Shown here: piece after piece, positions 29,740 through 59,843 of the stretch
How positions within the stretch are numbered: the first letter of the stretch is position 1
Layout of the letters: each line of letters opens with the position of its first letter
Assembly: GCF_036924515.1 (NCBI RefSeq)
Contig: NZ_JAZHRR010000001.1
Coordinates: 5,365,001 to 5,429,000, forward strand
Direction: 5' to 3'
Length of the DNA: 64,000 nucleotides
Origin: Bradyrhizobium sp. AZCC 1610
Lineage (GTDB): Bacteria; Pseudomonadota; Alphaproteobacteria; Rhizobiales; Xanthobacteraceae
Made by a program: the position numbers and the translations under genes
Notes under the pieces: generated by a model
Databases searched by the model: none
Told to the model about the DNA's origin: nothing
The model's input: the letters and a program-made list of their open reading frames with translations, nothing else

Positions 29740-29860
29740 GCGAGCGAACATGGCGAAGCCGGGACGCAGCGTCAACATAGCGTTTTCGAGCGAAGCATGC
29801 CCTCGGACTTGATCCGGGGTGGGACCGGTTCGCGCGAAGAAAACGCGTCAGCAGAGAGTT

Positions 29861-31114: not shown

Positions 31115-31122
31115 GTGCCTGA

Positions 31123-31650: not shown

Positions 31651-31684
31651 TACGTTCTCCGGCGGCGTCGTTAGTATCGCCGTC

Positions 31685-31770: not shown

Positions 31771-31839
31771 GATAGACCGTGACTTGTCAGCCTTGGTGCT
31801 TATATCAGCCCCACGACAAAGTCATGCTAACCTGCGGAC

Positions 31840-32730: not shown

Positions 32731-33358
32731 CGCGACGGCCGCGGTCACAATTCCCGGCGTGCTGCTCGCCGGCGGACTGGCGCGGCGGATGGGCGGCGGC
32801 GACAAGCCGATGCGCACGATCGCCGGCCGCACTATCCTCGACCGCGTGATCGCGCGGCTCAAGCCGCAATGCGACGGCCTCATCCTCAATGCCAATGGCG
32901 ATCCCGCACGCTTTGCGGCGTTCGGACTTCCGGTCATTGCAGATGGCGTCTCCGATTTTCCGGGTCCACTCGCCGGCATTCTGGCCGCACTCGATTGGGC
33001 CGCGGCCAATCGGCCTGACGTAAAATTTTTTCTCAGCGCCGCCGCGGACTGTCCGTTCCTCCCACGCGATCTGGTGTCGCGGCTGTATGGCGCGCTCGAA
33101 GCCGAGAATGCCGAGCTTGCCGTCGCCGCTTCCGACGGGCAATCGCATCCAGTAATCGGGCTTTGGAGCGTCGGTTTGCGAGAACAGCTTCGCCACGCAC
33201 TCGTCGTCGAGGATATCAGGAAGATCGATCGCTGGACCGCGCGCTTCAAGCTCGCCACCGTGACATGGCCGGTCGAACCGCTCGATCCGTTCTTCAACGC
33301 CAACACCATGGACGACATCGCGGAAGCGGAGCGGCTGGCGGCGCTGGATGGCGGCTAG
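32720..33358 (+). CDS. mobA: MobA molybdenum cofactor guanylyltransferase
   Basis: 212 residues with the nucleotidyltransferase signature [16 protein letters not shown] and the acidic loop [13 protein letters not shown]. It transfers GMP from GTP to Mo-molybdopterin, giving the MGD form used by formate dehydrogenase. The GTG at 32720 lies inside the last codons of fdhD (11-bp overlap, translational coupling). An earlier in-frame ATG at 32675 would give 15 extra residues that are basic and unlike the family. Confidence 0.9.
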
Positions 33359-33365
33359 GCTCGTG

Positions 33366-33535
33366 CCCCGGACGCTGCGCAGCACCTAAAGCGCGTTCAC
33401 GCGCGTCTTCAACGCGCTATGGTGATGCGCTGCTGATCCGGGGCCCATGGTCGCCCCAGAGATCGCCGCCAGAAGAGAATGGGTCCCGGCTCTGCGGAGC
33501 AGCGTGAAGAACGCTGCACCGCGTCCGGGACACGG
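33366..33535. repeat. Dispersed repeat, copy 1 (inverted copy at 38213-38370)
   Basis: Two modules follow one another: CCGGACGCTGCGCAGCACCT to GATCCGGGGCCCATGG (to ~33450), then GGGTCCCGGCTCTGCGG to CGTCCGGGACACG (33481-33533). The same two modules occur in reverse orientation at 38213-38370 with high identity over the first ~85 bp. Each module is bounded by complementary CCGG-rich ends, so the element can fold into hairpins. Confidence 0.8.
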
Positions 33536-33569
33536 GAGATCGGACTTCGTCATCGCGTGCATACCGCCT

Positions 33570-33695
33570 CTACCCCGCCAACGGCACCGTCCAGGCGTCA
33601 TAGCCATAGACCCAGTCGGTATCGGTCGTGCCGCTGAGCCAGGTATTGGCGCGCGAGGTCTGCTGGATGCGCGCGAAGTAATCCGGCAATGCCCG
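33570..33695 (-). pseudogene. Frameshifted C-terminal remnant of an unidentified gene
   Basis: On the minus strand 41 codons before a TAG read ALPDYFARIQQTSRANTW followed by LSGTTDTDWVYGYDAW and VPLAG, protein-like and rich in aromatic residues, but the frame is blocked upstream by TGA. A neighbouring frame just upstream reads GLIAVDNAIVTG, so a single frameshift near 33690 may have separated two parts. I do not recognise the family. It lies between the repeat and the MoeA-PBP gene. Confidence 0.4.
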
Positions 33696-33735
33696 TCACG
33701 ATCGCGTTGTCGACGGCTATCAGGCCCGAACCGAG

Positions 33736-35697
33736 TCAGGCCGGCCGAAACCCCGCCTGCTCCAGCGCGGCGCGGCCCTCGTCCGACGCCAGCGCGTCAA
33801 GGAAGGCCTGCACGGCCGGCCGTTGCTTGCGCGCCTTTACCAGCGCAAAATCATAATGCTCTTCGGCAAAGGGAATGAAACCCAGGTTTGACGCATGCGC
33901 GACCGGCGCAATGGTCATGCCCCAATCGGCGCGGTGCTGCGCGACCGCAGCCGCCACCGCATTGTGCGAGCGCGGCTGATTCCAGTAGCCGTCCGGACGC
34001 GCGCCGCCGAGCAGCCGGTCGATCAGGATGCGCGTGCCCGCCCCCTGGTTGCGATTGACCATGATGCAGGCAGGATCGGCTAGAGCCGCGCGCACCGCGT
34101 GTTCCGCATTCAAGCCCTCGAAACGCCGGTCGCCCTTACGGAACACGATACCCTGCATGCGACGCCAGCCCGGCACCAGTTCGAGCCCGTCGCTGAGATA
34201 GGGCGTGTTGTAGGTCTCGGTCTTCTCGTCGAACAGATGGATCGGCGCAAAATCGCACTCGCCGCGCTTGGCGGCCGCAAGGCCGCCGAGGCTGCCGACG
34301 GCGATCGAGCGTACGACGAGCCCGGCATGCGCTAATGGCGCCGTGACGAGATCGAGCCCGGTGCAGTGGCTCCCGATGACGACGATATCCGGCACCCGCA
34401 CATGCGGGGTGAACAGCATCACCTCGGTCTCACTGCCGGCCGGCATCTGGTCAGCCAGCGCGTCGATGCGCAGAAAGCCGTCGGCCTGCGCAAAGGAGGT
34501 GATAGCGCCAGAGCCCTTGCCTGTGGGGTACGCGATCAACCCATCCGCGCCTTCGACCAGCGACACCATGACGAATTCGGTGCGGCCGAGTTCGGAGGCG
34601 ATCCGTACCGGTACGCGTGCATTGACCTTGGCGTCCGAACGCGGCGGCAGCCCCGCCATCCGCCGCAGCACCGGCACGATCATGTCGTGGAAAGTAAACA
34701 TCGCCGAGGTCGGAAATCCCGGCAGGATGATCACCGGCTTGCCATCGCACACCGCGAGGCACAGCGGCTTGCCGGGCTTCAGCGCCACGCCATGGGCGAT
34801 GATGCCGGGTTGGCCGACCCGGCCGATGATGCGGTGGGACACGTCGCCCGCGCCCTTCGAAGTGCCGCCTGACAGCACCAGCATGTCGCTGGTCTCCAGC
34901 GCCTTGCGCATTACGGCTTCGAGCTGTTCCTCGTCATCGGCAACGGCGCCGAGAAACACCGCCTCGCCGCCATTTTCGTTCACCGCCGCTGCGACGATCG
35001 CACCATTGGCGTCATAGATTGCGGCAGGAGGCAGCGGCTGACCGGGCTGCACCAGTTCGTCGCCGGTGGAGATCACCGCAACGCGCGGCCGGCGCGCGAC
35101 GGTGACGTGCGCGATGCCGCAGGCCGCCAGCATGCCGATCTCGCGCGAGCCGATGATAGTGCCAGCGCGCAGCAGCGCCTCGCCACGGGCGATATCGGAG
35201 CCGGCATAGGACACGAATTGTCCGGGGGAAGCGGCACGGCGGATTTCGATCGCACGAGATCCTGAGGGCTGCGTGTGTTCGACCATCACGACGGCGTCTG
35301 CCCCGCGCGGCACCGGACCGCCGGTCGCGATCGGCGTGGCTGTTCCCGACAATACCGGCCGCGTCGGCGCGGTGCCGCAGGCGATCACCTCGTCGTTCAA
35401 CATCACGCGGACCGGCGAAGCCTCGCCGGTAGCAGCGAGATCGGCGGAACGCACCGCAAAGCCATCGACATTGGAACGATCGAACGGCGGCACGTCGATC
35501 GGCGCCACCACGTCCTCGGCGAGCGCGCAGCCAAGTGCGTCGGCGAGCGGACGCCTTTCGCTCGCGATCGCGCGCGGGAACAAGGCGGCTTCGAAACGCG
35601 TCAGCGCATCCTCGCGCGACAGGATCGTCAGGAACTGGTCCTGCTCGTTATTGTCGCGATCTCTGGGCGAGGGCGTATTGGTCATTCCCGAACTCAT
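33736..35697 (-). CDS. MoeA domain fused to a periplasmic-binding-protein-like domain
   Basis: 653 residues. Residues ~25-425 form a MoeA-like module (VPPFDRSNVDGFAV, ATGGPVPRGADAVVMVEH, ISTGDELVQPG, SGGTSKGAGDVSH, LPGFPTSAMFTF). Residues ~435-653 resemble the PBP-like domain (VIGSHCTGLDLVTAPLAHAG, NRNQGAGTRILIDRLLGG, DWGMTIAPVAHASNLGFIPF) found fused to MoeA or to ModE-type regulators. The second half likely binds molybdate, tungstate or a cofactor precursor in the cytoplasm, as no signal peptide exists. The start at 35697 lies one base after the upstream stop codon, so the two genes are coupled. Confidence 0.88.
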   Translation of the reverse strand: MSSGMTNTPSPRDRDNNEQDQFLTILSREDALTRFEAALFPRAIASERRPLADALGCALAEDVVAPIDVPPFDRSNVDGFAVRSADLAATGEASPVRVMLNDEVIACGTAPTRPVLSGTATPIATGGPVPRGADAVVMVEHTQPSGSRAIEIRRAASPGQFVSYAGSDIARGEALLRAGTIIGSREIGMLAACGIAHVTVARRPRVAVISTGDELVQPGQPLPPAAIYDANGAIVAAAVNENGGEAVFLGAVADDEEQLEAVMRKALETSDMLVLSGGTSKGAGDVSHRIIGRVGQPGIIAHGVALKPGKPLCLAVCDGKPVIILPGFPTSAMFTFHDMIVPVLRRMAGLPPRSDAKVNARVPVRIASELGRTEFVMVSLVEGADGLIAYPTGKGSGAITSFAQADGFLRIDALADQMPAGSETEVMLFTPHVRVPDIVVIGSHCTGLDLVTAPLAHAGLVVRSIAVGSLGGLAAAKRGECDFAPIHLFDEKTETYNTPYLSDGLELVPGWRRMQGIVFRKGDRRFEGLNAEHAVRAALADPACIMVNRNQGAGTRILIDRLLGGARPDGYWNQPRSHNAVAAAVAQHRADWGMTIAPVAHASNLGFIPFAEEHYDFALVKARKQRPAVQAFLDALASDEGRAALEQAGFRPA

Positions 35698-35698
35698 A

Positions 35699-36811
35699 TC
35701 AGTCCCGCAACATATAGGCATCGACCGGCGCGCTGGCCGCAAAGCCTTCCGAGCCGCCTGATACCGCGAGCCAGGCTTCGGCGCGGGCGATCGCGCCGAG
35801 CGACAATTCACCCACCGCCAGCGTGGTCCACGTATCCTGCTTGCGCTCCAGCAGCACGATTTCGGCGATACCGACGTGAGATGCAATCTTGCGCGCCAGC
35901 GGCAAATTGACCGTCTTGCGCTGGCGGCGGCCGGAGAGGCGATCGACCGCGGGAAGCGCCAGCGTCCACCATGCCGCAAGCGCGTGATCCGGCGCGCCCG
36001 GCAACACCACGACGGGCGTGTTACTGAGGCGCCCGACGGCCGAGGTGCGGCCGGGTTGCAGGGCAATGCCGTGGGCGAGAACTTTGCCGCGCGCAGCCAA
36101 TGCCGTCACCGCCGCGTCGGTGCGCCCGACGCCGGAGCCGCCGACAATCAAGAGCAGATCGCACGCGCCGTCATCGAGTGCCGCCGCAATCGATCCGGCA
36201 TCGCGGCCCGCGGCGGTGAAGGAGACGGTTTCGGCGCCCGTGGCTTGCGCGCTCTCCGCGATCAGATCCGCCGTCACGCTGCCACCCGGTACATTGACGA
36301 TGCCCAACCGCGGACGCCGGACGTTCAACCGCTCTACTCCCGCAGTGCGCGCCATCAGGAGATCGCGCGGCAGCACGCGCCGCCCGGCCTCCACGAGGAG
36401 ACAACCGGCTGCGATATCGCCGCCGGCCCGGCGCACGCCCTGCCCCGGGATCGCCTCCGCCAGCACCTGCGGCAGCGGGCCGGATAGGTCGACGGAATCG
36501 GAATCGAGCACGCAGTCGCAAGCCTCCGGGATGGCCTCGCCGGCCTCGACCCAGACCGGCGGCGCCGACAATGCCAACGGCGAATAGGAGGATGCCCCGA
36601 CGAGATCGCGGGCGCAAAAGGCGTAGCCATCAGCCACCGCAGTGTCGCGCGGCGGACAGGCCGGGAGCGGCGGCATCCCGGCGGCGATGCAACGCAGCGC
36701 TTCCTGAAGCGTTACTCCCACCGGCGCGACCGGTTCCAAACCGTTCAGCAGGGCGTCGAGCGCCACATCGAGCGGTGTCAGCGAGATCGGCAGGCGCTGG
36801 GGCGAGGTCAT
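35699..36811 (-). CDS. Divergent MoeA-like protein
   Basis: 370 residues with MoeA-like domain order, but several signature loops are altered. The motif usually SAMDGYA reads TAVADGYAF, the MPT-binding glycine loop reads IVGGSGVGRTDAA, and the usual LPGNP is LPGAPDHAL. It starts the two-gene unit with the MoeA-PBP fusion, 1 bp apart. It may act with the fusion as a MoeA pair, perhaps for a particular metal or enzyme; this is inference. The frame extends upstream past 36811, but the residues are not MoeA-like and overlap the divergent gene. Confidence 0.8.
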   Translation of the reverse strand: MTSPQRLPISLTPLDVALDALLNGLEPVAPVGVTLQEALRCIAAGMPPLPACPPRDTAVADGYAFCARDLVGASSYSPLALSAPPVWVEAGEAIPEACDCVLDSDSVDLSGPLPQVLAEAIPGQGVRRAGGDIAAGCLLVEAGRRVLPRDLLMARTAGVERLNVRRPRLGIVNVPGGSVTADLIAESAQATGAETVSFTAAGRDAGSIAAALDDGACDLLLIVGGSGVGRTDAAVTALAARGKVLAHGIALQPGRTSAVGRLSNTPVVVLPGAPDHALAAWWTLALPAVDRLSGRRQRKTVNLPLARKIASHVGIAEIVLLERKQDTWTTLAVGELSLGAIARAEAWLAVSGGSEGFAASAPVDAYMLRD

Positions 36812-49843: not shown

Positions 49844-50506
49844 ATGCCCAAAAATCCCTTCACCGATGTCTGGCAGTTCCTGACCGCGACTACCGGCGAC
49901 TATCTTCAGCTCGGAAACTGGCGCTTTCTGATCCTGGCGCTGTTCTGGGCGCTGCTGCTCGCCGGCATTGCAGTGGCCTTCCAGAATTGGCGGGAGGATT
50001 CGGCGCAACGTAGCGGGCGACATCTTGGAATCTGGCTGGTCCGGGTCCTGATCGGCTGCATGTGGTTCGAAGGCATGTTGTGGAAACTCCCGCTACCGGT
50101 GTCCGGCGGTCTGCAATACTGGACCGAACAGGAAACGACCCGCGCAGCGTTCGAGTTTCACGGCACCTTCGTGAAGGATATCGTGTTGCCCAACATGAAT
50201 TTCTTTGGGCCAATTGTTTTTCTTGCCGAGCTCGTGTTTGCCGCGTCGATGATCCTCGGGCTCGCGGTACGATTCGTGGGCGTGCTGGCCGTCGCCTATA
50301 CGCTGCAACTCTGGCTCGGCATCTATCGGCCGGGCGATCCGGCCGAGTGGCCGTGGTCGTACATGTTCCTGGCCATGCTGATGTTCCTGTTTGTGCTAGA
50401 GGGCGCCGGCCGCAGTCTTGGCCTTGATGCCTGGTTGCGCCGCAAAGTTCCAGCCGTGCGCGACAAGAAAGGTCTTGTCGGTTGGTTCCTGCATATCGCA
50501 GGCTAG
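49844..50506 (+). CDS. DoxX-like membrane protein
   Basis: 220 residues with four to five transmembrane helices (approx. 28-48, 66-84, 121-150, 165-185) and the pattern LIGCMWFEGMLWKLP, WYxFG-like, then FFGPIVFLAELVFAASMILGL, resembling the DoxX/DoxD family. Members accompany respiratory or thiosulfate:quinone oxidoreductase functions, but most are uncharacterised. It is 24 bp upstream of the methyltransferase-like gene and could be co-transcribed. Confidence 0.75.
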   Translation: MPKNPFTDVWQFLTATTGDYLQLGNWRFLILALFWALLLAGIAVAFQNWREDSAQRSGRHLGIWLVRVLIGCMWFEGMLWKLPLPVSGGLQYWTEQETTRAAFEFHGTFVKDIVLPNMNFFGPIVFLAELVFAASMILGLAVRFVGVLAVAYTLQLWLGIYRPGDPAEWPWSYMFLAMLMFLFVLEGAGRSLGLDAWLRRKVPAVRDKKGLVGWFLHIAG

Positions 50507-50530
50507 TCGCGATCGCTTTGCGCAAGAGAG

Positions 50531-51328
50531 ATGATACTGAGCCTTGAGTTCACAAGAACCGGACGACCGCGCCTGATGCCTGGCAGGCAAATGGCGGCAC
50601 TGGTGAGCGCGGCGATATTTCTTGCGGCGCTGGGCGCAGCTCGCGCATATGCCGCCGATATCGGCTATCGGGCTCCGCCTGGAGTCGCTGCAAAGGAGTT
50701 TCCCTCACCTCAGCGTCCGGTTGCGCAGATCGTCAGCCCAAGCCGCCACACCGCCGAGAAGCATCGCGACTCCCTGAATGAGGCCGGTGAGATCGCCCGT
50801 CTTCTCGAACTAAAGCCGGGCATGACGGTCGGTGACATTGGCGCGGGCAGCGGCTACCACACGGTCCGGCTCTCGCACCTCGTCGGCCCCGTCGTCGCCC
50901 AGGACGTCAAGCGGGACTACCTCATCGGGCTCGCCAAGCGAACGAAACGGCTGAGGCTGACAAACGTCACGTTCGCGCTGGGTGAACCACACGACCCGCG
51001 CCTGCCCGATTCCTCGCTGGATGCCGCCATCCTCGTGCACATGTATCACGAAATAGCCCAGCCCTATGCCTTCCTCTACAATCTCGCGCCGGCCTTGAAG
51101 CCGGGCGCGCGGGTCGGAATTGTCGACATCGAGGGTCCGACGTCAAAGCATGGCACGCCAATTGAGCTGTTGCGTTGCGAACTGGCCGCCGTTGGCTATC
51201 GCGAGATCGCGACATATCGGCTCGCAGGCGATGGCGGATACCTGGCGGTGCTCTCTCCACCGGAGAAAGCGGATCGAAAATCCCCCAGGGATATTGTTGC
51301 TTGTGGGGATCGTGCCGGCACTCGCTGA
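50531..51328 (+). CDS. Exported SAM-methyltransferase-like protein
   Basis: 265 residues. A hydrophobic stretch (AALVSAAIFLAALGAARAYA, residues ~22-41) ends in an AYAAD site, so the protein is probably exported. The core shows class I motif I (TVGDIGAGSGYHTVRLSHLV), motif II-like VVAQDV and a later AILVHMYHEIAQPYAF segment, the pattern of a small-molecule methyltransferase. An exported SAM enzyme is odd because SAM is cytoplasmic. Starts at 50576 and 50591 are alternatives that retain the hydrophobic segment. Confidence 0.75.
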   Translation: MILSLEFTRTGRPRLMPGRQMAALVSAAIFLAALGAARAYAADIGYRAPPGVAAKEFPSPQRPVAQIVSPSRHTAEKHRDSLNEAGEIARLLELKPGMTVGDIGAGSGYHTVRLSHLVGPVVAQDVKRDYLIGLAKRTKRLRLTNVTFALGEPHDPRLPDSSLDAAILVHMYHEIAQPYAFLYNLAPALKPGARVGIVDIEGPTSKHGTPIELLRCELAAVGYREIATYRLAGDGGYLAVLSPPEKADRKSPRDIVACGDRAGTR

Positions 51329-51435
51329 TCCGCTGGTGCTGGCCAGCATCCATCCTGGCCACCTTGAGTGAACAGAGACGCCGCGATTTAGGGCGTGTCG
51401 TCATTTAGCGGATTCGCAGGCTTGAGGATAGCGAG

Positions 51436-52323
51436 ATGACTGAGCGAATTTCGTTGGAGGGGACGGTCGCGGTTGTGACTGGCGCAGGCCGCGGGCTGGG
51501 GCGGGCATACGTCGAGCTTCTCGCCGAACGCGGTGCCCGGGTCGTGGTGAACGACCTGGGGACCGACGTATCGGGGTTCGGGAAGGACTCCACGATAGCG
51601 GCACAGGTGGCCGACCTCATTCGGTCACGTGGAGGCAAGGCAATCGCTGACGACAGCGATGTTTCCACCCCTGAAGGCGGCAGTGACCTGATCGCGACGA
51701 CCATCGAGCATTTCGGGAGAATAGACCTTCTCGTGAACAACGCTGGTATCTGCGGAAGCCAGCCATTCGAGGACGCTACCCTTGACGATTTCGATCACTA
51801 TTGGCGCGTACACCTCGGCGGGCCGGTCAACACGGTGAAGGCTGCCTGGCCATATATGGTCGCACAGCGCTATGGGAAGATCATCCTCACGACGTCAGTC
51901 AGCGGCCTGTTCGGACTACGTGGCCAAGCCACCTATGCGGCGGCCAAGTGCGCAGTAGTCGGATTGATGCGCATTCTTGCAATAGAAGGTGCCGAGCATG
52001 GGATTCTCGTGAACACCATTTCACCAGTCGGGTACACGAGGATGCACCCCGCCGCAGGATCCCGCTTGTCTGAAGCAGATGGAAGAGCCGCCATGCCGGT
52101 TGAGGCTGTTGCGCCAGCGATCGTCTGGCTGGCAAGCGATAAGTGTTCGGAGACGAACCACATCTACAACGTGGGAGTCGGAGCAATCCAACGTATCGCT
52201 ATCGTCATGGGACCTGGCTTCCACGATCCACATCTGACACCCGAGAGCATCGCCGAGAACTACGCAAAGGTCGAATCGATCGAGGGCTTCTCCGAACCGG
52301 GTCCGTTCGAGCCGAGTTCGTAG
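51436..52323 (+). CDS. Short-chain dehydrogenase/reductase
   Basis: 295 residues with the classical SDR features: cofactor motif VTGAGRGLGRAY, NNAGICG, catalytic serine in ILTTSVSGLF and the YAAAK catalytic pair. The C-terminal ~45 residues extend beyond a minimal SDR and resemble the shape of multifunctional-enzyme-type 3-hydroxyacyl-CoA dehydrogenases. Substrate unknown. It is convergent with the minus-strand GT2 gene, 8 bp apart. Confidence 0.9.
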   Translation: MTERISLEGTVAVVTGAGRGLGRAYVELLAERGARVVVNDLGTDVSGFGKDSTIAAQVADLIRSRGGKAIADDSDVSTPEGGSDLIATTIEHFGRIDLLVNNAGICGSQPFEDATLDDFDHYWRVHLGGPVNTVKAAWPYMVAQRYGKIILTTSVSGLFGLRGQATYAAAKCAVVGLMRILAIEGAEHGILVNTISPVGYTRMHPAAGSRLSEADGRAAMPVEAVAPAIVWLASDKCSETNHIYNVGVGAIQRIAIVMGPGFHDPHLTPESIAENYAKVESIEGFSEPGPFEPSS

Positions 52324-52331
52324 CGCCGCAG

Positions 52332-53096
52332 CTATGGTCCGCGAAGTTGCTGGTGTCGCAGCTCAAGCGCGAGGCGAACAAACGTTGTCGAAATCGACCA
52401 TGCCGCCTTGATGCCGGCGATGGGATTGCCGGAGACCTTCGATACCCCGCCGATCCGGCGCCGCTGCCCGACGGCGATCTCGAGAGCCGGCAAGCGGGCA
52501 GCCGCGACCCGCATCAGCATTTCCAGGTTCCAGCCATATGTCGCCTCGTTCATGCCGAGACGTCTGAGTTCATCCCGCCGGATGGCGCGAAACGGCGACA
52601 GGTCGGTGAAGCTTGCGCCATAGACGAGGCGCAGGAGCAGCCTGCCGACATGAGCCGCGACGACTTGCTGTGGCGCCATGCTGCCGGACTCGCATGAACC
52701 GCGAACGCGCGAGCCGAGAACGAAGGCAGCCTGCCCAGCGACGATCGGCGACACCAGATCAGAGATGAATTCTGCAGGATCGCTACCGTCGCCGTCGAGG
52801 AAAACCAGAATGTCGGCGTCATCGCGCACGGCAGCGATGCCTGCCTGGATGGCGCGACCGTAGCCGCGTTGCGGCTCGACAATCACGCGAGCCCCGGCGG
52901 CCTTTGCCCGCTCGGCCGTACGGTCCCGCGAGGCCCCGTCGACAACGATGACTTCGCTCACACTCTGCGCCAGCACCGCGGCCACGACCTGGCCAATTGC
53001 CGTTTCCTCGTCGAGACATGGAATGATCGCCGAAACGACGGGCGGGCGGCGCGACGCAGGCCGCTTGCCGCCGATCTCGTGGGTTACCTCGCTCAC
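52332..53096 (-). CDS. Family 2 glycosyltransferase
   Basis: 254 residues of the GT-A fold: VVSAIIPCLDEETAIGQVV, VIVVDGASRDRTAE and the metal-binding DGDGSD motif, then GSRVRG and the DPM1-like tail (FTDLSPFRAIRRDEL, NLEMLMRVAAARLP). It lacks the transmembrane helices of some polyprenol-linked enzymes. The GTG start overlaps the radical SAM stop codon (GTGA), so the two are translationally coupled. Last gene of a four-gene operon. The in-frame sequence upstream of 53096 is a shadow of the neighbour. Confidence 0.9.
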   Translation of the reverse strand: MSEVTHEIGGKRPASRRPPVVSAIIPCLDEETAIGQVVAAVLAQSVSEVIVVDGASRDRTAERAKAAGARVIVEPQRGYGRAIQAGIAAVRDDADILVFLDGDGSDPAEFISDLVSPIVAGQAAFVLGSRVRGSCESGSMAPQQVVAAHVGRLLLRLVYGASFTDLSPFRAIRRDELRRLGMNEATYGWNLEMLMRVAAARLPALEIAVGQRRRIGGVSKVSGNPIAGIKAAWSISTTFVRLALELRHQQLRGP

Positions 53097-54181
53097 AGGC
53101 TCCAGCGCAGGCCGCAATTGGCGCAGCTTTTTGGCGGATTGCTCGAAAGGAGCGCCGCACGAAAGTCCCGATACGCGGGCCCGTTCCAGATGTCCCGCAA
53201 CGACTGCTGCCCTGCATGGCCAAGCGTATAGTTGTCGTAGCCGTGCTGCGAGAATGGCGCGATACAGCACGGCAAGGCGCGGCCATTGGCCGTGAAATAC
53301 ATCAACGACCATGGCCGCCGGCAGAGCGACCACGGTGAACCGTCACCACTGCCCTTTAGACTTAATCCCGGTTCGGTTGCTGCGCCCGACGCGCTGAAGG
53401 TCACGCCGAGGGAACGCGCCAGATCCTCGGCCTGCTTCAGATAGGCCGCTTCTTCGTTGGTCAGGCGCTCGAACAGGGCCTGATCCGGCCGTGCCATGCC
53501 ATGGGCGGTTTCAGTGAAGAATACGAGCCGTTGCAGATAAACCTCTTTGACACCGATCTCCGCCGCAACTTTCACAAATGCCGGGAGTTGCTCAACAGTC
53601 TCTCTCAGGCCAGTTAGCCAAACGGAAACCTGCGGCCGGGTGTGTCCCTCTCGCTCCTGCAGCTCACGAAACGCGCGCACGTTCCGGATGATGCGGCCGA
53701 AATAATCTCTGCCACGGATGGCCTTGAAACTCTCGCGGTTTGACGCGTCGAGCGACACACGCAGCTCATCAAGCCCAGCGTCGATCAGCGCACGGCCGTG
53801 ACGCTCGCTGAGGACCGTTCCATTGGTGTTGAACAGAACGTAAACGCCGCGGTCCTTCAGGTATCTGACCATCCGGGGCAGGTTCGCGACCAGCATCGGC
53901 TCGCCAACCCCGTGCAGAACCGCCCGCGCGAGATCGGGAACCTGGTCGACAATCGACGCAAACAGATCCCAGCTCATGTCCGCCGGCGGCTCGAGCTCCT
54001 CGTAGGTGCGAGGACAGGTGGTGCACAGCAGGTTGCAGCGATTGGTCACTTCCAGATACAGGCAGACCGGCGGACGCCGGGCGATCTCGGTGCGCTCGCC
54101 CGTGACCGACTCGTGATAGTGGCGCGGATCGAATGGCGCGCGGGTGCCTGGCGCTTCGCCGGAAAGGCTCATTGCGATCAC
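53093..54181 (-). CDS. Radical SAM/SPASM protein
   Basis: 362 residues. The radical SAM cluster cysteines are C49, C53 and C56 (TNRCNLLCTTCPR). Then follow the glycine-rich GVGEPMLVANLP region and NTNGTVLSE. A C-terminal SPASM-like region has cysteines in SLCRRPW, ALPCCIAPF and SCANCGLRW, which can hold auxiliary iron-sulfur clusters. The family modifies peptides, sugars or nucleosides; no precursor peptide is evident nearby. GTG at 54181 overlaps the upstream stop as GTGA; an ATG at 54172 is an alternative. Confidence 0.9.
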   Translation of the reverse strand: MIAMSLSGEAPGTRAPFDPRHYHESVTGERTEIARRPPVCLYLEVTNRCNLLCTTCPRTYEELEPPADMSWDLFASIVDQVPDLARAVLHGVGEPMLVANLPRMVRYLKDRGVYVLFNTNGTVLSERHGRALIDAGLDELRVSLDASNRESFKAIRGRDYFGRIIRNVRAFRELQEREGHTRPQVSVWLTGLRETVEQLPAFVKVAAEIGVKEVYLQRLVFFTETAHGMARPDQALFERLTNEEAAYLKQAEDLARSLGVTFSASGAATEPGLSLKGSGDGSPWSLCRRPWSLMYFTANGRALPCCIAPFSQHGYDNYTLGHAGQQSLRDIWNGPAYRDFRAALLSSNPPKSCANCGLRWSL

Positions 54182-55542
54182 CCTGTGTCTGCGATGCGCT
54201 GCATCCTAGTCCTCCAGGCCGCCAAGGCCCAAGCCAGGAAAAGACCTCCGAACAAAATTGACTTGGTCACCATTCTTGGAATGTAGAAATCCCAGTCGAG
54301 TTGTTCCGACAGCAAGAGCGCTCCGATCGAAACGACCCAGGTGGACGCGGATCCACACAGGGCGACAAACGGCATTATGACCAGAAAATACCAAGGATAG
54401 TTGGGCGACAACAACAGCAGAGCAAGGAGTAACAGCATGTTGATGCCGGCGAGGCTGGACGCGATGCCGTGATGAGAACTGCGGGCCACCGAGAGCCCCT
54501 TGAACATCATGACCAGCGCGGCCAGTACGGCGTAGGCGACAACGTCACCTTGATGCTCGCCGAACGCAAGGCGCCAGAGCGACAACAGCCAGAGATCGTT
54601 GCCGGCACTGATACCCTCCTCCATCAGATAGCCTTTGGTCAGGAATCCGAGAACGCCCCAACCGACCGATACATAGGGAAGATAGCAAAGCGCGACGGCA
54701 GCGATCACGACGAGCGGCATTTTAAGGTCCCACGGGCGCCAGATCCCAGCCAGCACCGGCGCAGCATATGGCTTGACCAGCACCGAAAACGCGATCAGGA
54801 CGGCCCCGCGGAGAGCATGGCCGGTCAGGGCAATCCACAGGCCGAGCAGCATCAGCGCAACCATCAGCGCGTCGACATGGCCGCTGTTGGCAATCTCCCA
54901 CAACGGAAGCGGGTGCCAGAGATAGGCGATCACGCGCGTCACCGGGTGGTTCATACGCCGCAGCAGGAGCATGATCAGCGTAACGGTGACGGACTCGCAC
55001 CCCAGCAGTGCGAGACGCATCACAGTCACGCTTTCACCGATCCGCGTGACGATGAGGAAGAAAAATTGCGCCACCGGAGGATAGATGGTGACGGCAGTAT
55101 CGGCCCGATTGATGTTGGGAAAGATCGCCCCGTCGCGCAGAAACGCCAGCGCCTCATCGGCCGGGAAGTAGCGGTAGGGATTGATGCCAGCGGCCTGAAC
55201 CCTGCCGTCCCAGACATAGCGATAGATGTCGCTGGACAGAAGCGGATCGAATAGCAGCACATAGGCTCTCAGCACGATGCCAAGTCCAAGAATGAGCCAT
55301 AGCGCGCGATCGGCCGGTACGCGCTCGGCAAAGCGAGCTGCTGCGATCGTCAGCAGACCTGCGAGGATGGTCAGAGCCATGAAGGCGTTGTCACCGCCAG
55401 CCTTGAAGGCACAGGGGGTCACCAGGGTCAGACAGACCAGGACAACGCCGATGCCGGCCAACAGATGAAGCGGAGGCAGGTTGTTGGCGGAGCGGACCAG
55501 TCGACCGAATTGACTGGCAATGGCCCCCGGCATTGGCTTCAT
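54178..55542 (-). CDS. Polytopic glycosyltransferase (mannosyltransferase/GT87-like)
   Basis: 454 residues with about ten to twelve transmembrane helices. The first periplasmic loop carries DPLLSSDIYRYVWDGRVQAA and NPYRYFPADE, the GT-C pattern of acidic and aromatic residues of polyprenyl-phosphate-sugar-dependent transferases such as alpha-mannosyltransferases. It probably glycosylates a membrane or exported acceptor on the periplasmic side. The ATG at 55542 overlaps the DUF2064 stop codon (ATGA). Confidence 0.85.
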   Translation of the reverse strand: MKPMPGAIASQFGRLVRSANNLPPLHLLAGIGVVLVCLTLVTPCAFKAGGDNAFMALTILAGLLTIAAARFAERVPADRALWLILGLGIVLRAYVLLFDPLLSSDIYRYVWDGRVQAAGINPYRYFPADEALAFLRDGAIFPNINRADTAVTIYPPVAQFFFLIVTRIGESVTVMRLALLGCESVTVTLIMLLLRRMNHPVTRVIAYLWHPLPLWEIANSGHVDALMVALMLLGLWIALTGHALRGAVLIAFSVLVKPYAAPVLAGIWRPWDLKMPLVVIAAVALCYLPYVSVGWGVLGFLTKGYLMEEGISAGNDLWLLSLWRLAFGEHQGDVVAYAVLAALVMMFKGLSVARSSHHGIASSLAGINMLLLLALLLLSPNYPWYFLVIMPFVALCGSASTWVVSIGALLLSEQLDWDFYIPRMVTKSILFGGLFLAWALAAWRTRMQRIADTG

Positions 55543-56261
55543 GGGCTTATCTGCGGCGCGGCATCGAGAAAGGCCCGGCTTGCCGGGGCAAGGCCACCGC
55601 CGCGAAAGCGCGTCGAATTGCCGGCCAGTTCGTCCTTGAGCCAACCTAGCGCTTCAATGTCGTCGATATCGTACCATTCCGGAAGCAGCGCCATCGCAAG
55701 CCCGATTTCGGCAGCGCGCTCGCATGTGCTGCGAGCCACGGTTTCGGTTCCCCAGGCAATCTCCGTGAACAGCCGCCTGTGCGCGTGCTTCAAGCCGATG
55801 AGATAGTAGCCGCCATCGCTCGCCGGTCCGAGCACCATCCGGTCACCTGGCTCGCGAAGGGTCTCAATGGCCTGCACCAGGAAACGGGCAGGAAGGGTCG
55901 GGCTGTCGCCATTGACAAGCAAAACACAGTCATGTCCGTCGCTCAGGAGATCGAGCGCGGCACCGAACAGGACATCGCCGAGATCGTCGCCAACCTGCAG
56001 CAGCAGCCCGAATGTTGCCGGAAGCAGGTCCCGCATGATGTGTTCGACTCCCGCGGGCGCATAGACGCCATACCCGCGCCTGCCGAGGGTCTCCGGGACC
56101 GCATCGATGGCTGCGGCGACGTCACGCAGAAAACAGGCCGAGAGCTCCGAAGCGGCAACCGCGCCGACGGCCGTCGCAAGCCGCGTCTTTGCGCGGCCAG
56201 GCTGCGGCGCTTTACAAATGATCCCGATCGCCGCGACGCTCACGGCATCATTGACCGCCAT
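55539..56261 (-). CDS. DUF2064 / TIGR04282-type glycosyltransferase-like protein
   Basis: 240 residues of the GT-A-like family that includes CofC- and MobA-like transferases: N-terminal IICKAPQPGRAKTRL, then CVLLVNGDSPTLPARFL and GPASDGGYYLIGL. Homologues are annotated as arsenosugar or rSAM-linked glycosyltransferases. Here it opens a four-gene operon with a membrane glycosyltransferase, a radical SAM protein and a GT2. The start at 56261 was chosen because the family motif begins shortly after it; upstream residues are not conserved. Confidence 0.85.
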   Translation of the reverse strand: MAVNDAVSVAAIGIICKAPQPGRAKTRLATAVGAVAASELSACFLRDVAAAIDAVPETLGRRGYGVYAPAGVEHIMRDLLPATFGLLLQVGDDLGDVLFGAALDLLSDGHDCVLLVNGDSPTLPARFLVQAIETLREPGDRMVLGPASDGGYYLIGLKHAHRRLFTEIAWGTETVARSTCERAAEIGLAMALLPEWYDIDDIEALGWLKDELAGNSTRFRGGGLAPASRAFLDAAPQISP

Positions 56262-56632
56262 CGCCGAACAAACCTCGTTACGCCGTGGCCGGTCGCTGCT
56301 ATCGTTGTCCGCGACAGCGGGCAAGTGCCGGCCTCTGCCTGCGGCGATTGTCTCGCCAGGCCGCCGCCGGGAGAAGCCAAAAGTATCACCGGCGTCAGAA
56401 AAAAATAGACTCCGGGTGATGTAACAAGATGGCTTTGAACGGCGTAATGATGGGGGATACCCATAACCACGTCCCAACCGTAGATTGGCGCGGAGGAAAC
56501 GAACAGCAAGCATACAGAAGCGATCATTCCGCATGCCGGGTGTCGTTCCGGACCCGACGGCGACGTCGGCTGCAATAGCATACAGCCGACTGCATCCTGC
56601 CAGTTCAATTCGGAACACACCGGAGGGCTGTC
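56262..56632. promoter_or_regulatory. Divergent spacer with perfect dyad operator candidate
   Basis: 371 bp between the DUF2064 operon and the acyl-CoA-dehydrogenase-like gene. GTCGGCTG (56565-56572) and CAGCCGAC (56583-56590) form a perfect 8-bp inverted repeat with a 10-bp spacer, 43 bp before the right-hand start codon. A dimeric repressor or activator could bind here; no regulator gene adjoins. GGAGG at 56622-56626 is the ribosome site. Confidence 0.5.
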
Positions 56633-57778
56633 ATGAATCATGAGACCGCGGTTTCGAATGCCAAGGAGATTGCCGATCGCATTCTCGCGCCGGCGGCCAG
56701 GCAAGACGACAGGGACGCTCGATTTTCGTCCCAAGCAGTCGCGGCGCTCGGTCAGGCCGGATTGCTGGGGATCATGCTGCCCACCGAGGTGGGTGGCTCG
56801 GAGCTGGGGCCGCGGACCTTCGCTGCCGTTATCGCAACGCTCGCGGAAGCGGACGCGTCCGCCGCGATGGTTTATTTGATGCACATGAGCGCCACCGCAA
56901 CGATCGCGGCGGCCCGTCCGGGTGCCGCGGTCGCGCCGACGCTAAAAGACATTTCGGCCGGCCGGCACCTGACCACTCTGGCATTCAGCGAAGCCGGTTC
57001 GCGCAGCCACTTCTGGGCGCCTGTCTCGCGAGCTGAACGCAACGGAGCCAACGTGTGCATCACGGCCAGGAAATCGTGGGTGACAAGCGCCGGTCACGCG
57101 CAAAGCTATGTCGTCTCGGCCCTGGCTCCTGAAGGTCAGGGTCCAACCGATTCAACGCTTTACCTTTTCTCCAGTGGTACGCCCGGACTATCGGTCGCCG
57201 GCCCATGGGATGGTTTCGGGATGCGCGCCAACGCTTCCGCGCCGATGATCCTCGAGGGTTGCGAGGTGGGGCCTGGTCGCCAGCTGACCGACGACGGCGC
57301 CGGCTTCAAGGCGATGCTGGAGATTGTGCTTCCACTGTTCAACCTCGGAACATCGGCGGTCGCGCTTGGCCTTTGCCGGGCCGCGGTGGCGGGGACGGCG
57401 GCTCATCTCAAGAGCGCGCGCTTCGAGCATTTGGGCCAGACTCTCGGAGAGAGCCTGCCGACGCTTCGCGCTCAGCTTGCGACGATGCAGATCGACACTG
57501 ATGGGCTCGCGGCGCGCATCGACGATCTGATCGATCATCTTGAGCGCCCCCGAGATACCACCATGCTGCGCGTGCTTGAGAGCAAGGCGTCGGCAGGTGA
57601 TGTTGCTATCGCCGTCACCTCGGCGGCGATGCGGGTGTGCGGAGGCGCTGCGTTTTCCAGACATTTGGCCATCGAGCGATTGTTCCGTGATGCCCATGCC
57701 GGCGCCGTTATGGCACCGACGGGCGATGTTCTGCGCGAGTTCATCGGCAAAGCCATCTTGGGAATCCCGCTGTTCTAG
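56633..57778 (+). CDS. Acyl-CoA-dehydrogenase-family protein
   Basis: 381 residues with ACAD features: N-terminal helical domain (QAGLLGIMLPTEVGGSELGP), the middle beta region TTLAFSEAGSR.., and the C-terminal four-helix domain ending MRVCGGAAFSRHLAIERLFRDAHAG. A clear catalytic glutamate position could not be assigned. The family includes flavin-dependent monooxygenases acting on non-CoA substrates (DszC/SfnB-like), and context does not indicate fatty-acid oxidation. The stop codon lies inside a long palindrome. Confidence 0.85.
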   Translation: MNHETAVSNAKEIADRILAPAARQDDRDARFSSQAVAALGQAGLLGIMLPTEVGGSELGPRTFAAVIATLAEADASAAMVYLMHMSATATIAAARPGAAVAPTLKDISAGRHLTTLAFSEAGSRSHFWAPVSRAERNGANVCITARKSWVTSAGHAQSYVVSALAPEGQGPTDSTLYLFSSGTPGLSVAGPWDGFGMRANASAPMILEGCEVGPGRQLTDDGAGFKAMLEIVLPLFNLGTSAVALGLCRAAVAGTAAHLKSARFEHLGQTLGESLPTLRAQLATMQIDTDGLAARIDDLIDHLERPRDTTMLRVLESKASAGDVAIAVTSAAMRVCGGAAFSRHLAIERLFRDAHAGAVMAPTGDVLREFIGKAILGIPLF

Positions 57779-57846
57779 TGGTCCGATCCTAACATTCGCA
57801 TTCCATTCGGAACCACGTTTGCGAGCGTTAGGATCAAAGGACCACT
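57777..57846. repeat. 70-bp palindrome at the end of the ACAD-like gene
   Basis: AGTGGTCC-GATCCTAAC at 57777-57793 pairs with GTTAGGATC-AAA-GGACCACT at 57827-57846; an inner TTCGCA / TGCGAG pair extends the stem. Its first base pairs overlap the stop codon. It may be a small mobile palindrome or a transcript-stabilising hairpin between two cotranscribed genes. Confidence 0.7.
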
Positions 57847-57901
57847 GGCAAACTATAATGATCGCATTTGGAATATTGAGCTCGAAAAGCGAGATGCAAT
57901 C

Positions 57902-58747
57902 ATGAGCCGGACGATCTGGGTAGGCGCCGTCGCATATGACCCGAAGGTGGTTGGTATCTGGGAGGGCATGCGACGCTACTTTCACGAGGAAGCGGGCCTC
58001 GCCGTCGAGGTGGTGCTGTTTCAAAGTTACGAGGCGCAGGTCACTGCCCTCCTGGCCTCGCCGAGCGAACAGCTGCCGCGCATCGACATCGGATGGAATA
58101 CGAACCTCGCCTATATCCAGGCCGATGCCTGGAGCGACCATCGCTGCCGACCGATCGCGATGCGCGATACGGATGTGGGCTGGATGACCAAGATCGTCGC
58201 GGTAACCGGGGGGCCTGTTGCTACGCTTGCCGATCTTAAAGACCGCACCCTCGCTCTCGGCAGCCGCGACAGCGGCCATGCGGCAATCCTCCCGGTTTAT
58301 TTTCTGCAGCGCGAGGGACTGGTTGAGGGGAAGGACTACCAAACGCTGCGCTTCAACACCGACCTTGGCAAGCACGGTGACACGGGTACAAGCGAGTCCG
58401 AGGTCGTTCGCGCGGTTCTCGACGGCCGTGCCGATGCCGGCGCAATCGGCAGCCCATTCTGGAACGCGGTGCGTACCGAGCGTCTAGTGCCGCAAGGTGC
58501 GCTGACCGAGATCTGGACCTCGCAGCCCTATAACCACTGCATGTTCACCGCTCGGTCCGATCTCGACCCCGCGTTGGAGCAGCAGTTTGCCAAAGCATTA
58601 TTTGGGATGAGCTACGATAACCCGGCCCATCGTCCTGTGCTAGAAGCGGAAGGGTTGCGCCAATGGATAGCACCGCAGCTTGAACCGTATGCGCAATTAC
58701 GGGAAGCGTCGACGCAGCAAGGTTTCCTAACGCGGCCTTTGACCTAG
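57902..58747 (+). CDS. PhnD/TauA-like binding protein without signal peptide
   Basis: 281 residues of the PBP type II fold related to PhnD/SsuA/TauA: VEVVLFQSYEAQVTALLASP, then SRDSGHAAILPVYFLQ and LDGRADAGAIGSPFW. The N terminus begins directly at TIWVGAVAYDPKVVGIW without a leader, so it should be cytoplasmic, and no permease or ATPase gene is nearby. It may be an enzyme or metabolite carrier and not a transporter part. It follows the ACAD-like gene by 123 bp, with the palindrome between. Confidence 0.8.
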   Translation: MSRTIWVGAVAYDPKVVGIWEGMRRYFHEEAGLAVEVVLFQSYEAQVTALLASPSEQLPRIDIGWNTNLAYIQADAWSDHRCRPIAMRDTDVGWMTKIVAVTGGPVATLADLKDRTLALGSRDSGHAAILPVYFLQREGLVEGKDYQTLRFNTDLGKHGDTGTSESEVVRAVLDGRADAGAIGSPFWNAVRTERLVPQGALTEIWTSQPYNHCMFTARSDLDPALEQQFAKALFGMSYDNPAHRPVLEAEGLRQWIAPQLEPYAQLREASTQQGFLTRPLT

Positions 58748-58796
58748 CAGCCGAGCCAAGGCCCCGATCCGGCGTTGAGTGCGCTCCGCGCCTTTG

Positions 58797-59843
58797 TCAG
58801 GCGCAATTGAAGATCATCGCCAACCTGCGCTGATGCTCGGATTCGCGATCGAAGGCGCGGCGCACGGCTGCGAACGATTCGGCGAGCGGAAAGATTTCAC
58901 GGCTGACCAGCAGGTCGTCATCCTCGGCTCCAACCGGGTGCCAAAAAACGCCCTCCGCCGTAATCGTCATCTCGGGAACCAGATCCGTCCTTGCCAAAGC
59001 GATGCCCTGCGTGGCGGAGCCTCGCAGCGCAATCCGCCTGATCACCCGGTTCTCCTCGCTAATATGATGAGCGTCAAGGAAGCTGCGGAACTCATCGGCC
59101 TCTGCGTCAGTCGACACTGTAGCCGCCAAACGCACCCGGAATCCTTCAGCGCGGGCCCGTTCGATTCCCGTCCAGGCGCGTGCCCATGTCCCCTTTCCAC
59201 GATGGCTGTCGTGGCGCTCTGGCGTGGGACTATCGAGGCTAATCTGGAACATTACGCGCTCGCGCGGCAACGATCGCAGCGTTGCGAGCCGACTCCCGGC
59301 AAACAGCATGCCGTTGGTGAGAACTGTCGTCGGCGCCGCCGCAGCGCACGCGGCAAGGATCTCGCCAATATTCGGCAGCATGAATGGCTCGCCGCCGGTC
59401 ACAAAGATTTCACCTACGCCGAGTTCCGCTGCCTCGGTAGCGATCTGTCGCACCCGCTCGATACCGAGAGCCCGCCGCGGAGCTTTGGGTGACGAGCGTA
59501 CGCAACAATAGTCGCAGCTCAGGTTGCAGTCGAAGTTGGTGTAAAGCCATAGGCGAGAGCCGACAGGCCGATCTTCTCCGACATTCTCGGGGGCCTCTCC
59601 GTACCGGAGCACCCAACGGGTGCGATCTTTTTCGACTGCTGTGTCAACCAAACTGTTGCGGGTGAAACGACACCATGCCTCGAGCTCGGGGCCGATGCCT
59701 GGATCGCCGCTGATCACGGCCACCAGATCGCCTTTACGGCTTCGGCGGAGCGCAGCTATCAAATCCGGCAAGAGGCCCGAGGCAAACGTCTTGGTGCCGG
59801 CGTCGAGTTCAACGTTCGCGTTCGTTCTCATGAACAAACCCAT
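58797..59843 (-). CDS. Radical SAM protein with TusA-like N-terminal domain
   Basis: 348 residues. Residues ~7-83 align to the TusA fold (compare the window's own TusA at 29488-29739): GDLVAVISGDPGIGPELEAW corresponds to GDFLEVHCTDPLSVIDIPNL. The segment holding the catalytic cysteine (CPLP) is FASGLLPDLI here, so the cysteine is missing. The radical SAM cysteines are C106, C110 and C113 (FDCNLSCDYC), followed by VTGGEPFMLPNI and LTNGML. The C terminus ends in NCA. The start at 59843 has TAGGA upstream; 59831 is an alternative. Confidence 0.85.
   Translation of the reverse strand: MGLFMRTNANVELDAGTKTFASGLLPDLIAALRRSRKGDLVAVISGDPGIGPELEAWCRFTRNSLVDTAVEKDRTRWVLRYGEAPENVGEDRPVGSRLWLYTNFDCNLSCDYCCVRSSPKAPRRALGIERVRQIATEAAELGVGEIFVTGGEPFMLPNIGEILAACAAAAPTTVLTNGMLFAGSRLATLRSLPRERVMFQISLDSPTPERHDSHRGKGTWARAWTGIERARAEGFRVRLAATVSTDAEADEFRSFLDAHHISEENRVIRRIALRGSATQGIALARTDLVPEMTITAEGVFWHPVGAEDDDLLVSREIFPLAESFAAVRRAFDRESEHQRRLAMIFNCA

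What the first reader, a model, noticed from the sequence alone, without database searches (positions are those of the whole stretch)
49844..59843. Uncharacterised gene set: two radical SAM proteins, three glycosyltransferase-like proteins, ACAD, leaderless PhnD-like protein, SDR
Twelve kilobases outside the phn genes hold a mix I cannot assign to a known pathway. A DoxX-like gene, a methyltransferase-like gene and an SDR lie on the plus strand. A four-gene operon (DUF2064, GT-C, SPASM radical SAM, GT2) lies on the minus strand with ATGA/GTGA overlaps. Divergent from it are an ACAD-like gene and a PhnD-like gene, facing a second radical SAM gene. Together they could build and oxidatively tailor a glycosylated, possibly membrane-linked metabolite. 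Each step is inferred only from family.
Basis: inference. Interest (0 to 1): 0.7.

Follow-up and report, generated by a model that had tools for sequence, protein, structure and literature searches.

The report
Linked thiosugar-type glycosylation gene cassette
A set of about nine neighbouring soil-bacterium genes that looked like a random mix is a travelling unit, and it ties an unexplained group of redox genes, also known from tubercle bacilli, to genes like those that put a rare sulphur-bearing sugar on cell-surface glycans.

Summary
The genes exist as described and behave as one cassette: DoxD-like protein; GT2, DUF2064, GT-C; ACAD, leaderless PhnD-like protein and radical SAM enzyme (NCBIfam Rv1679/Rv1680/Rv1681 families). 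In 146 genus genomes the radical SAM (20), GT-C (21) and SPASM (21) genes occur in the same 20 genomes plus one incomplete one. The halves are also neighbours in some Acidobacteria, Myxococcales, Actinobacteria and a Thermoplasmata archaeon. In an actinobacterial class sample all 10 radical-SAM genomes carry DUF2064 (85 of 197 overall). Five actinobacterial cassettes add an MTA-phosphorylase homologue; seven of seven fetched, probably mycobacterial regions show phosphorylase-GalE-GT2-DUF2064, fitting the MtxS/MtxT methylthioxylose cluster (PMC8780516, passages).

Best reading: a variant pathway putting a 5-modified (methylthio-type) pentose on polyprenyl phosphate, then on an envelope acceptor; the radical SAM/SBP/ACAD/DoxD module supplies or tailors the 5-substituent. 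Linkage is shown; chemistry is inferred. GT-C and sister-strain nucleosidase show no detectable similarity to the mycobacterial ones; the window lacks GalE and the nucleosidase. The SDR is a passenger; the methyltransferase is Bradyrhizobium-type only.

The parts
49844..50506 (+). DoxD/DoxX-like membrane protein
   Evidence: PF04173 E 9.5e-7; a DoxD-like match lies in 62 of 80 loci
50531..51328 (+). methyltransferase-like protein with a hydrophobic, signal-like N-terminus (by eye); peripheral, Bradyrhizobium-type loci only
   Evidence: PF08241; 16 of 21 Bradyrhizobium-type loci, 0 of 59 others
52332..53096 (-). GT2, polyprenyl-phosphate glycosyltransferase-like, homologous to the GT2 at the MtxS position of probably mycobacterial clusters
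   Evidence: PF00535; nearest model AglJ, 114 of 325 bits; 34% to the GT2 of L119, E 2e-25
53093..54181 (-). SPASM radical SAM protein, matched only in Bradyrhizobium-type cassettes
   Evidence: PF04055 + PF13186; nearest model TIGR04317 at 149 of 380 bits; 19 of 21 loci, 0 of 59 others
54178..55542 (-). GT-C membrane glycosyltransferase (GT87-like)
   Evidence: GT87 E 2.6e-4, below the gathering score; 26-32% to acidobacterial and actinobacterial members, of which the L067 copy is over the GT87 score
55539..56261 (-). DUF2064 / TIGR04282, CofC-like sugar nucleotidyltransferase or GT-A-fold enzyme
   Evidence: TIGR04282 155.9 bits over cut-off 134; PDB 3cgx 'Putative nucleotide-diphospho-sugar transferase' E 9e-20
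56247..56330 (-). sequence resembling the 5' leader of the nucleosidase-like (PNP) gene of sister strains
   Evidence: tblastn 28 aa, 50% identity, 34.7 bits in a 441-base search, with blastn support (67% over 201 bases to L001); not seen at E 1e-4 against the whole window
56633..57778 (+). ACAD-fold flavoprotein (Rv1679/FadE16 family) without the usual catalytic glutamate
   Evidence: NF049984 433.7 bits, cut-off 600; Ala361 in 73 of 73 opposite the YEGT glutamate
57902..58747 (+). leaderless PhnD/PtxB-fold protein (Rv1680 family)
   Evidence: NF049985 305.3 bits, cut-off 400; model pLDDT 93, PDB matches PhnD, PtxB, ArrX
58797..59834 (-). radical SAM enzyme with degenerate TusA-like N-domain (Rv1681 family); start chosen by alignment
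   Evidence: NF049973 493.5 bits over cut-off 380; CxxxCxxC plus Cys136 in 81 of 81 rows (numbering from the 59909 start)

Best explanation
The set is one accessory cassette for decorating an envelope glycan or lipid with a 5-modified pentose of the methylthioxylose (MTX) type. Proposed flow: a 5'-modified adenosine (S-methyl-5'-thioadenosine or a relative) loses adenine to a nucleoside phosphorylase (in the cassette of some strains, absent here), giving a 5-modified pentose-1-phosphate; DUF2064 activates it to an NDP-sugar; an epimerase (GalE elsewhere, possibly the SPASM radical SAM enzyme here) adjusts the ring; GT2 puts it on polyprenyl phosphate; GT-C transfers it to the acceptor outside the membrane. 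The linked radical SAM / leaderless SBP / ACAD / DoxD module supplies or oxidatively tailors the 5-substituent; S-oxidation by the ACAD-fold flavoprotein is the most concrete guess, because the MTX of tubercle bacilli also exists as its sulphoxide. Shown: gene content, linkage, homology of GT2 and DUF2064 to the mycobacterial-type cluster, loss of the ACAD glutamate, SBP fold. Inferred: every reaction.
For: Same 20 of 146 genus genomes carry radical SAM, GT-C and SPASM. In 59 loci outside the Bradyrhizobium type, window queries alone match SBP in 57, ACAD 52, DoxD 35, DUF2064 21, GT2 19, GT-C 13, against 0-6 for each of 25 unrelated window genes searched the same way. In the actinobacterial class sample all 10 radical-SAM genomes have DUF2064 (85 of 197; Fisher 1.6e-4, relatedness not corrected), within 20 kb in 5 of 10. 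An MTA-phosphorylase homologue lies with GalE, GT2, DUF2064 and the module in 5 of 88 loci (the L057 copy scores 270.8 bits, cut-off 306). Seven of seven fetched PPE-bearing (probably mycobacterial) regions have MTAP-GalE-GT2-DUF2064; PMC8780516 passages name Rv0539 MtxS and Rv0541c MtxT. MTX and its sulphoxide occur in LAM (PMC8531672 passages). A nucleosidase-like gene heads the operon in 6 of 21 Bradyrhizobium-type loci, with partial or leader-only matches in 9 more.
Against: The window GT-C shows no detectable homology to the protein at the MtxT position (hhalign probability 1.1, but that profile had 3 close sequences); the sister-strain nucleosidase is not close to MTAP; GalE and MTAP have no match in the window, GalE none in 21 Bradyrhizobium-type loci. 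75 of 187 class-sample genomes without the radical SAM have DUF2064, so the sugar half exists alone. G246 (81% complete) has the sugar half and DoxD but no ACAD, SBP or radical SAM on its 9 kb contig. In 5 of the 10 class-sample genomes closeness is not shown (4 on different contigs, 1 at 1.9 Mb). 17 of 47 loci with full flanks show neither GT2 nor DUF2064. One of 19 cassette genomes (G297) has no TIGR04282 match. No chemistry was measured.
Confidence: 0.48

Rival explanations
1. Heteroatom-sugar route of the ArsS kind: the radical SAM enzyme itself joins a 5'-deoxyadenosyl group to a small oxyanion-like substrate (phosphorus, arsenic, sulphur or selenium) handed over by the leaderless PhnD-like protein; the nucleosidase, DUF2064, GT2 and GT-C then process the 5-substituted nucleoside to a glycoconjugate.
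For: DUF2064 is over the TIGR04282 'arsenosugar biosynthesis' cut-off; SBP fold close to ArrX, PtxB, PhnD, AioX; nucleosidase-like gene in the cassette of several strains; radical SAM has conserved extra cysteines 136 (81 of 81) and 369 (79 of 81, 2 gaps). The ArsS reaction is recalled.
Against: Radical SAM scores only 40 bits of 300 for ArsS and GT2 57.7 of 182 for TIGR04283; in the tubercle bacillus the only such sugars I met in the passages read are MTX and its sulphoxide; the SBP stretch facing the PhnD ligand loop differs (by eye; ligand residues recalled). The loci were not searched for arsenic genes.
Confidence: 0.2
2. Generic envelope glycosylation: GT2, DUF2064 and GT-C add an ordinary polyprenyl-linked hexose, and the module modifies that hexose or the lipid; the MTX similarity is only family likeness.
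For: GT2 is nearest to AglJ and dolichyl-phosphate hexose transferase models; GT-C is GT87-like; no similarity of the GT-C to the MtxT-position protein was detected.
Against: MTA-phosphorylase homologues inside five cassettes and the mycobacterial-type gene order; nucleosidase-like genes or partial matches in 15 of 21 Bradyrhizobium-type cassettes, which a hexose route would not need.
Confidence: 0.2
3. Two unrelated systems that merely share a frequently transferred region.
For: The sugar half also occurs without the other: DUF2064 without radical SAM in 75 class-sample genomes, and closeness is not shown in 5 of 10.
Against: Repeated adjacency in several phyla with different gene orders; no radical SAM genome of that sample lacks DUF2064.
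Confidence: 0.1

Closest known systems
Methylthioxylose (MTX) capping pathway of mycobacterial lipoarabinomannan (MtxS Rv0539, MtxT Rv0541c)
   Same: Homologous GT2 and DUF2064 side by side; a hydrophobic GT-C-like protein nearby; a phosphorylase-superfamily gene in sister cassettes; in Actinobacteria GalE and MTA-phosphorylase homologues too
   Different: GT-C and nucleosidase without detectable similarity, no GalE, extra SPASM radical SAM, and a physically linked radical SAM/SBP/ACAD module
Rv1678-Rv1681 gene set of Mycobacterium (NCBIfam NF049986, NF049984, NF049985, NF049973)
   Same: Same radical SAM family over cut-off; ACAD and SBP best match those families; DoxD and Rv1678-type protein beside them in Actinobacteria
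   Different: ACAD and SBP below the curated cut-offs; no Rv1678-type match outside Actinobacteria with the one query used; function unknown in both. In print Rv1680 is called a putative phosphonate transporter component from structure likeness (PMC8562490, one passage)
Arsenosugar biosynthesis (ArsM, ArsS, TIGR04282, TIGR04283)
   Same: DUF2064 over the TIGR04282 cut-off; radical SAM + glycosyltransferase pair logic (recalled)
   Different: Rv1681-type protein far below ArsS, GT2 below the TIGR04283 cut-off, methyltransferase far below ArsM models
PhnD/PtxB/ArrX periplasmic binding proteins
   Different: No room for a leader peptide in the window's frame; own invariant residues K157 H158 D160 H212 C213 in 79 of 79 rows

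Membership tests
MTX capping pathway | MtxS-type GT2 | tested here: met
   34% identity, E 2e-25 to the GT2 at the MtxS position of a probably mycobacterial cluster, L119; activity not tested
MTX capping pathway | DUF2064 next to the GT2 | tested here: met
   29% identity, E 1e-7; same operon here, adjacent in 7 of 7 fetched regions
MTX capping pathway | MtxT-type GT-C | tested here: inconclusive
   hhalign probability 1.1, but the comparison profile had 3 similar sequences and its members are taken as MtxT only by position and hydrophobicity
MTX capping pathway | MTA phosphorylase and GalE in the cluster | tested here: not met
   No match in the window at E 1e-4; sister strains have a different phosphorylase-superfamily protein; GalE 0 of 21. 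Both present in five actinobacterial cassettes
MTX capping pathway | 5-methylthiopentose on an envelope glycan | not testable with these tools
   needs chemistry
Rv1678-Rv1681 set | Rv1681 radical SAM over cut-off | tested here: met
   493.5 of 380 bits
Rv1678-Rv1681 set | Rv1679 ACAD and Rv1680 SBP over cut-off | tested here: inconclusive
   433.7 of 600 and 305.3 of 400 bits; best family by far in each case
Arsenosugar biosynthesis | ArsS radical SAM | tested here: not met
   40.4 of 300 bits for the Rv1681-type protein; TIGR04167 is not among the 25 shown for the SPASM protein
Arsenosugar biosynthesis | TIGR04282 and TIGR04283 pair | tested here: inconclusive
   TIGR04282 met (155.9 of 134), TIGR04283 not met (57.7 of 182)
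Phosphonate ABC transporter binding protein | exported by a signal peptide | tested here: not met
   Longest frame in the window leaves 9 residues before the first conserved motif; 40 of 78 loci at most 15, 36 uncertain, 2 cut
Acyl-CoA dehydrogenase | catalytic glutamate of the YEGT motif | tested here: not met
   Ala in 73 of 73 rows; a base elsewhere is not excluded

The most novel reading that the evidence does not exclude
The Rv1678-Rv1681-type module is an unrecognised radical-SAM pathway dedicated to making or modifying a 5-heteroatom-substituted pentose, with a leaderless PhnD-fold protein acting as cytosolic enzyme or metabolite chaperone and an ACAD-fold flavoprotein as S-oxygenase; it travels with MTX-type sugar genes across bacteria and an archaeon.
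Probability: 0.33. Interest if true: 0.85.

Novelty: new variant of a known kind. Interest (0 to 1): 0.63.

Why it matters
The Rv1679-Rv1681 families have names but no demonstrated function in the listings I searched (one passage calls Rv1680 a putative phosphonate transporter component). Their repeated physical and phylogenetic tie to MTX-type sugar genes gives a concrete, testable role. MTX is called the hallmark of tubercle bacillus lipoarabinomannan (PMC8531672 abstract); if the reading is correct, 5-modified pentoses are more widespread in soil bacteria than known, and the sulphoxide form would get a candidate enzyme. It would also identify a leaderless binding-protein fold used inside a biosynthetic pathway. 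Many relatives are probably misnamed: a search gave 6342 proteins at E 1e-20 among 7999 scored candidates (not all need be of this type), and the source names shown among the best 120 are phosphate/phosphonate/phosphite or PhnD/SsuA transport names, many rows having no name.

Tried and rejected

Paper searches with no functional answer for the Rv1678-Rv1681 set or DUF2064: (binding-protein-fold enzymes) added nothing. The paper on MtxS/MtxT (Angala 2017) is not held; I know it only through citing papers, of which I saw passages.

Caveats on counts: the 80 loci are the best 80 of 146, chosen by similarity to the window's radical SAM, so they over-represent close relatives; group labels come from record titles, and the 21 'Bradyrhizobium-type' loci include MAGs titled Bradyrhizobiaceae or Alphaproteobacteria (L003, L009, L015, L020); short contigs count as absences. 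The counts used several query versions per family but the controls only one; one search gives the single-query counts. In one search further matches were not listed; its loose E-value makes 149 of 150 genomes 'match' with other radical SAM proteins, and only the own genome is over the cut-off. The p-values ignore relatedness. The class sample includes its own centre G292 and G298, both met earlier, and 2 of its 10 radical SAM matches (G465, G368) are below the family cut-off. Nine of the 19 genomes were picked by me after seeing their loci. Of 11 PPE-bearing genomes, 8 have TIGR04282 and I fetched 7 of those 8 (not G458); PPE genes make them probably, not certainly, mycobacterial. An earlier wording of the leader test used start codons that I had chosen myself; one search replaces it.
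Full report
1. What is there. The window is part of a 7.75 Mb single-contig genome. Its closest loci are Bradyrhizobium or near it (95-86% identity in the radical SAM protein for the first 19 loci), so the host is very probably Bradyrhizobium (inference). The operon overlaps are real: DUF2064 stop/GT-C start ATGA at 55542-55539, GT-C/SPASM GTGA at 54181-54178, SPASM/GT2 GTGA at 53096-53093.

2. Families. The ACAD, leaderless PhnD-like and second radical SAM proteins best match three NCBIfam families named after Mycobacterium genes: Rv1679/FadE16 (433.7 bits, cut-off 600), Rv1680 SBP-like (305.3, cut-off 400) and Rv1681 radical SAM (493.5, cut-off 380). DUF2064 is over the TIGR04282 cut-off. 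GT2 is nearest to AglJ but below cut-off. The SPASM radical SAM is far below its nearest model. GT-C is weakly GT87-like.

3. Linkage. A scan with the radical SAM protein found 146 related stretches in a collection with one genome for each of 84,980 species; the best 80 were kept. In them, by tblastn with several query versions for the main families (counted): SBP 78, ACAD 73, DoxD 62, DUF2064 45, GT2 42, GT-C 32, SPASM 19, peri7 (an unknown, apparently exported protein of about 245 residues) 18, Rv1678-type membrane protein 18, MT 16, PNP-like 14, GalE 12. By record title the loci are 21 Bradyrhizobium-type, 11 acidobacterial, 4 verrucomicrobial, 1 other Hyphomicrobiales, 3 myxobacterial, 1 Thermoplasmata and 39 actinobacterial. 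With the window's own proteins only, the 59 loci outside the first group match SBP in 57, ACAD 52, DoxD 35, DUF2064 21, GT2 19, GT-C 13, SDR 5, SPASM 0 and MT 0. Twenty-five unrelated window genes searched the same way hit 0-3 of 21 Bradyrhizobium-type and 0-6 of 59 other loci each. Among 47 loci with at least 8 kb on both sides, 30 carry GT2 or DUF2064 and 17 do not; by group DUF2064 is in 15 of 15 Bradyrhizobium-type, 4 of 5 acidobacterial and 8 of 24 actinobacterial loci.

4. Gain and loss as a unit. In 146 genomes of the genus, the radical SAM gene occurs in 20, GT-C in 21 and SPASM in 21; the 20 are the same genomes, and the extra one is G246, an 81% complete genome with a 57%-identical GT-C. 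G246's 9 kb contig has GT2, SPASM, GT-C, DUF2064, a PNP-like gene and DoxD but not ACAD, SBP or the radical SAM. It is the one exception to strict pairing in the genus sample and may reflect incompleteness or a real sugar-only version.

5. Direction of dependence. In 197 genomes of the class of a Kribbella genome the Rv1681 family (E 1e-70) occurs in 10, 8 of them over the cut-off, and TIGR04282 (E 1e-20) in 85; all 10 are among the 85. In 5 of the 10 the two genes are within 20 kb (G298, G342, G381, G401, G482); in 4 they lie on different contigs and in 1 at 1.9 Mb. A GT-C query hit 31 of the 197, 30 of which have DUF2064, but only 4 of the 10 radical SAM genomes. So the sugar half often exists alone, while the radical SAM half was not seen without DUF2064. 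In 19 cassette-bearing genomes (nine picked by me), 18 have TIGR04282 and 13 have it within 20 kb of the radical SAM (with the positions); 2 of 14 control genomes have it at all.

6. The link to methylthioxylose. Several actinobacterial cassettes contain a GalE-like gene, and five (L057, L072, L073, L109, L111 of 88 loci searched) also contain an S-methyl-5'-thioadenosine phosphorylase homologue (the L057 copy's best model 270.8 bits, cut-off 306; the other four were not scanned). Searching for PPE genes picked out 11 genomes of the class sample; 8 of them have TIGR04282, and I fetched 7. All seven regions show MTAP-GalE, about 4 kb, then GT2-DUF2064, with a histidine kinase and response regulator between in three. 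One of them, G381, also has the Rv1679-Rv1681 set, about 12 kb from the MTAP gene. In three regions inspected a hydrophobic protein of 451-454 residues lies beyond DUF2064 on the other strand, directly next to it in one; it has no Pfam match in the one copy scanned and is taken as MtxT-like by position only. Passages of PMC8780516 state that Rv0539 (MtxS) forms polyprenyl-linked methylthioxylose and Rv0541c (MtxT) transfers it to lipoarabinomannan caps. That Rv0535/Rv0536 are the phosphorylase and GalE is recalled; the gene order found here fits. PMC8531672 passages report methylthioxylose and its sulphoxide in lipoarabinomannan. An older review passage had proposed Rv0541c for another mannoside step (PMC3229680).

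7. How far the window matches. GT2 (34%, E 2e-25) and DUF2064 (29%, E 1e-7) are homologous to the L119 pair. GT-C is not detectably related to the MtxT-position protein, a weak test. A phosphorylase-superfamily gene (PF01048 in L005) is the first gene of the operon in 6 of 21 Bradyrhizobium-type loci (L001, L002, L004, L005, L008, L018; 293-299 of 299 residues matched), a 120-residue partial match in L003, and 25-54 residues, mostly leader, in L006, L007, L009, L011-L015; it is also full-length in L095 and L096 and shortened in L093. L034 has a 55%-identical copy 9 kb away. In the window only a leader-like stretch was seen. Relatives lie in one acidobacterial, one myxobacterial and one actinobacterial locus (L021, L039, L062). 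It is not close to MTAP by sequence, though its weak PDB matches include an MTA phosphorylase. GalE has no match in the window or in 21 Bradyrhizobium-type loci, and SPASM none in the other 59; a radical epimerase role for SPASM is a guess from that complementarity.

9. Verdict. The cassette is real and unusually widely shared. It is best filed as a variant of 5-modified-pentose (MTX-type) glycosylation with an accessory radical SAM module of unknown chemistry. It is not shown to be a member of the MTX pathway in the strict sense: the phosphorylase and GalE tests failed in the window and the GT-C test was inconclusive.

Noticed in passing
L119:7099-8367 and the similar reading frame L121:7431-8696: In the MTX-type region L119, a protein with an oxidoreductase molybdopterin-binding domain (PF00174) sits between the GT-C-like gene and DUF2064; a look-alike frame lies in the same place in L121 (not scanned). 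The family includes sulphoxide reductases (recalled), so a sulphoxide cycle on the sugar is conceivable.
   Followed up: no
L031:9213-9944, L008:495-1244, L040:6540-7268: An apparently exported protein family of about 245 residues recurs in 18 of 80 cassettes; two members scanned have no Pfam or NCBIfam match.
   Followed up: partly
window 56247-56330 and L003, L006, L007, L009, L011-L015, L093: A nucleosidase-like first gene of the operon seems to be lost repeatedly in related strains, leaving partial or leader-only matches, while the rest of the cassette stays.
   Followed up: partly
window 24726-36066: A molybdenum/formate dehydrogenase gene group with several MoeA-like genes; the frame 33736-36066 looks like MoeA followed by a binding-protein-like domain (read by eye, not scanned).
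   Followed up: no
window 19772-21178: A reading frame that looks like a group II intron reverse transcriptase (read by eye).
   Followed up: no
L057, L067, L072, L073, L108, L119, L120, L121: A response regulator and histidine kinase of one type recur inside or beside MTX-type clusters, suggesting dedicated regulation.
   Followed up: no
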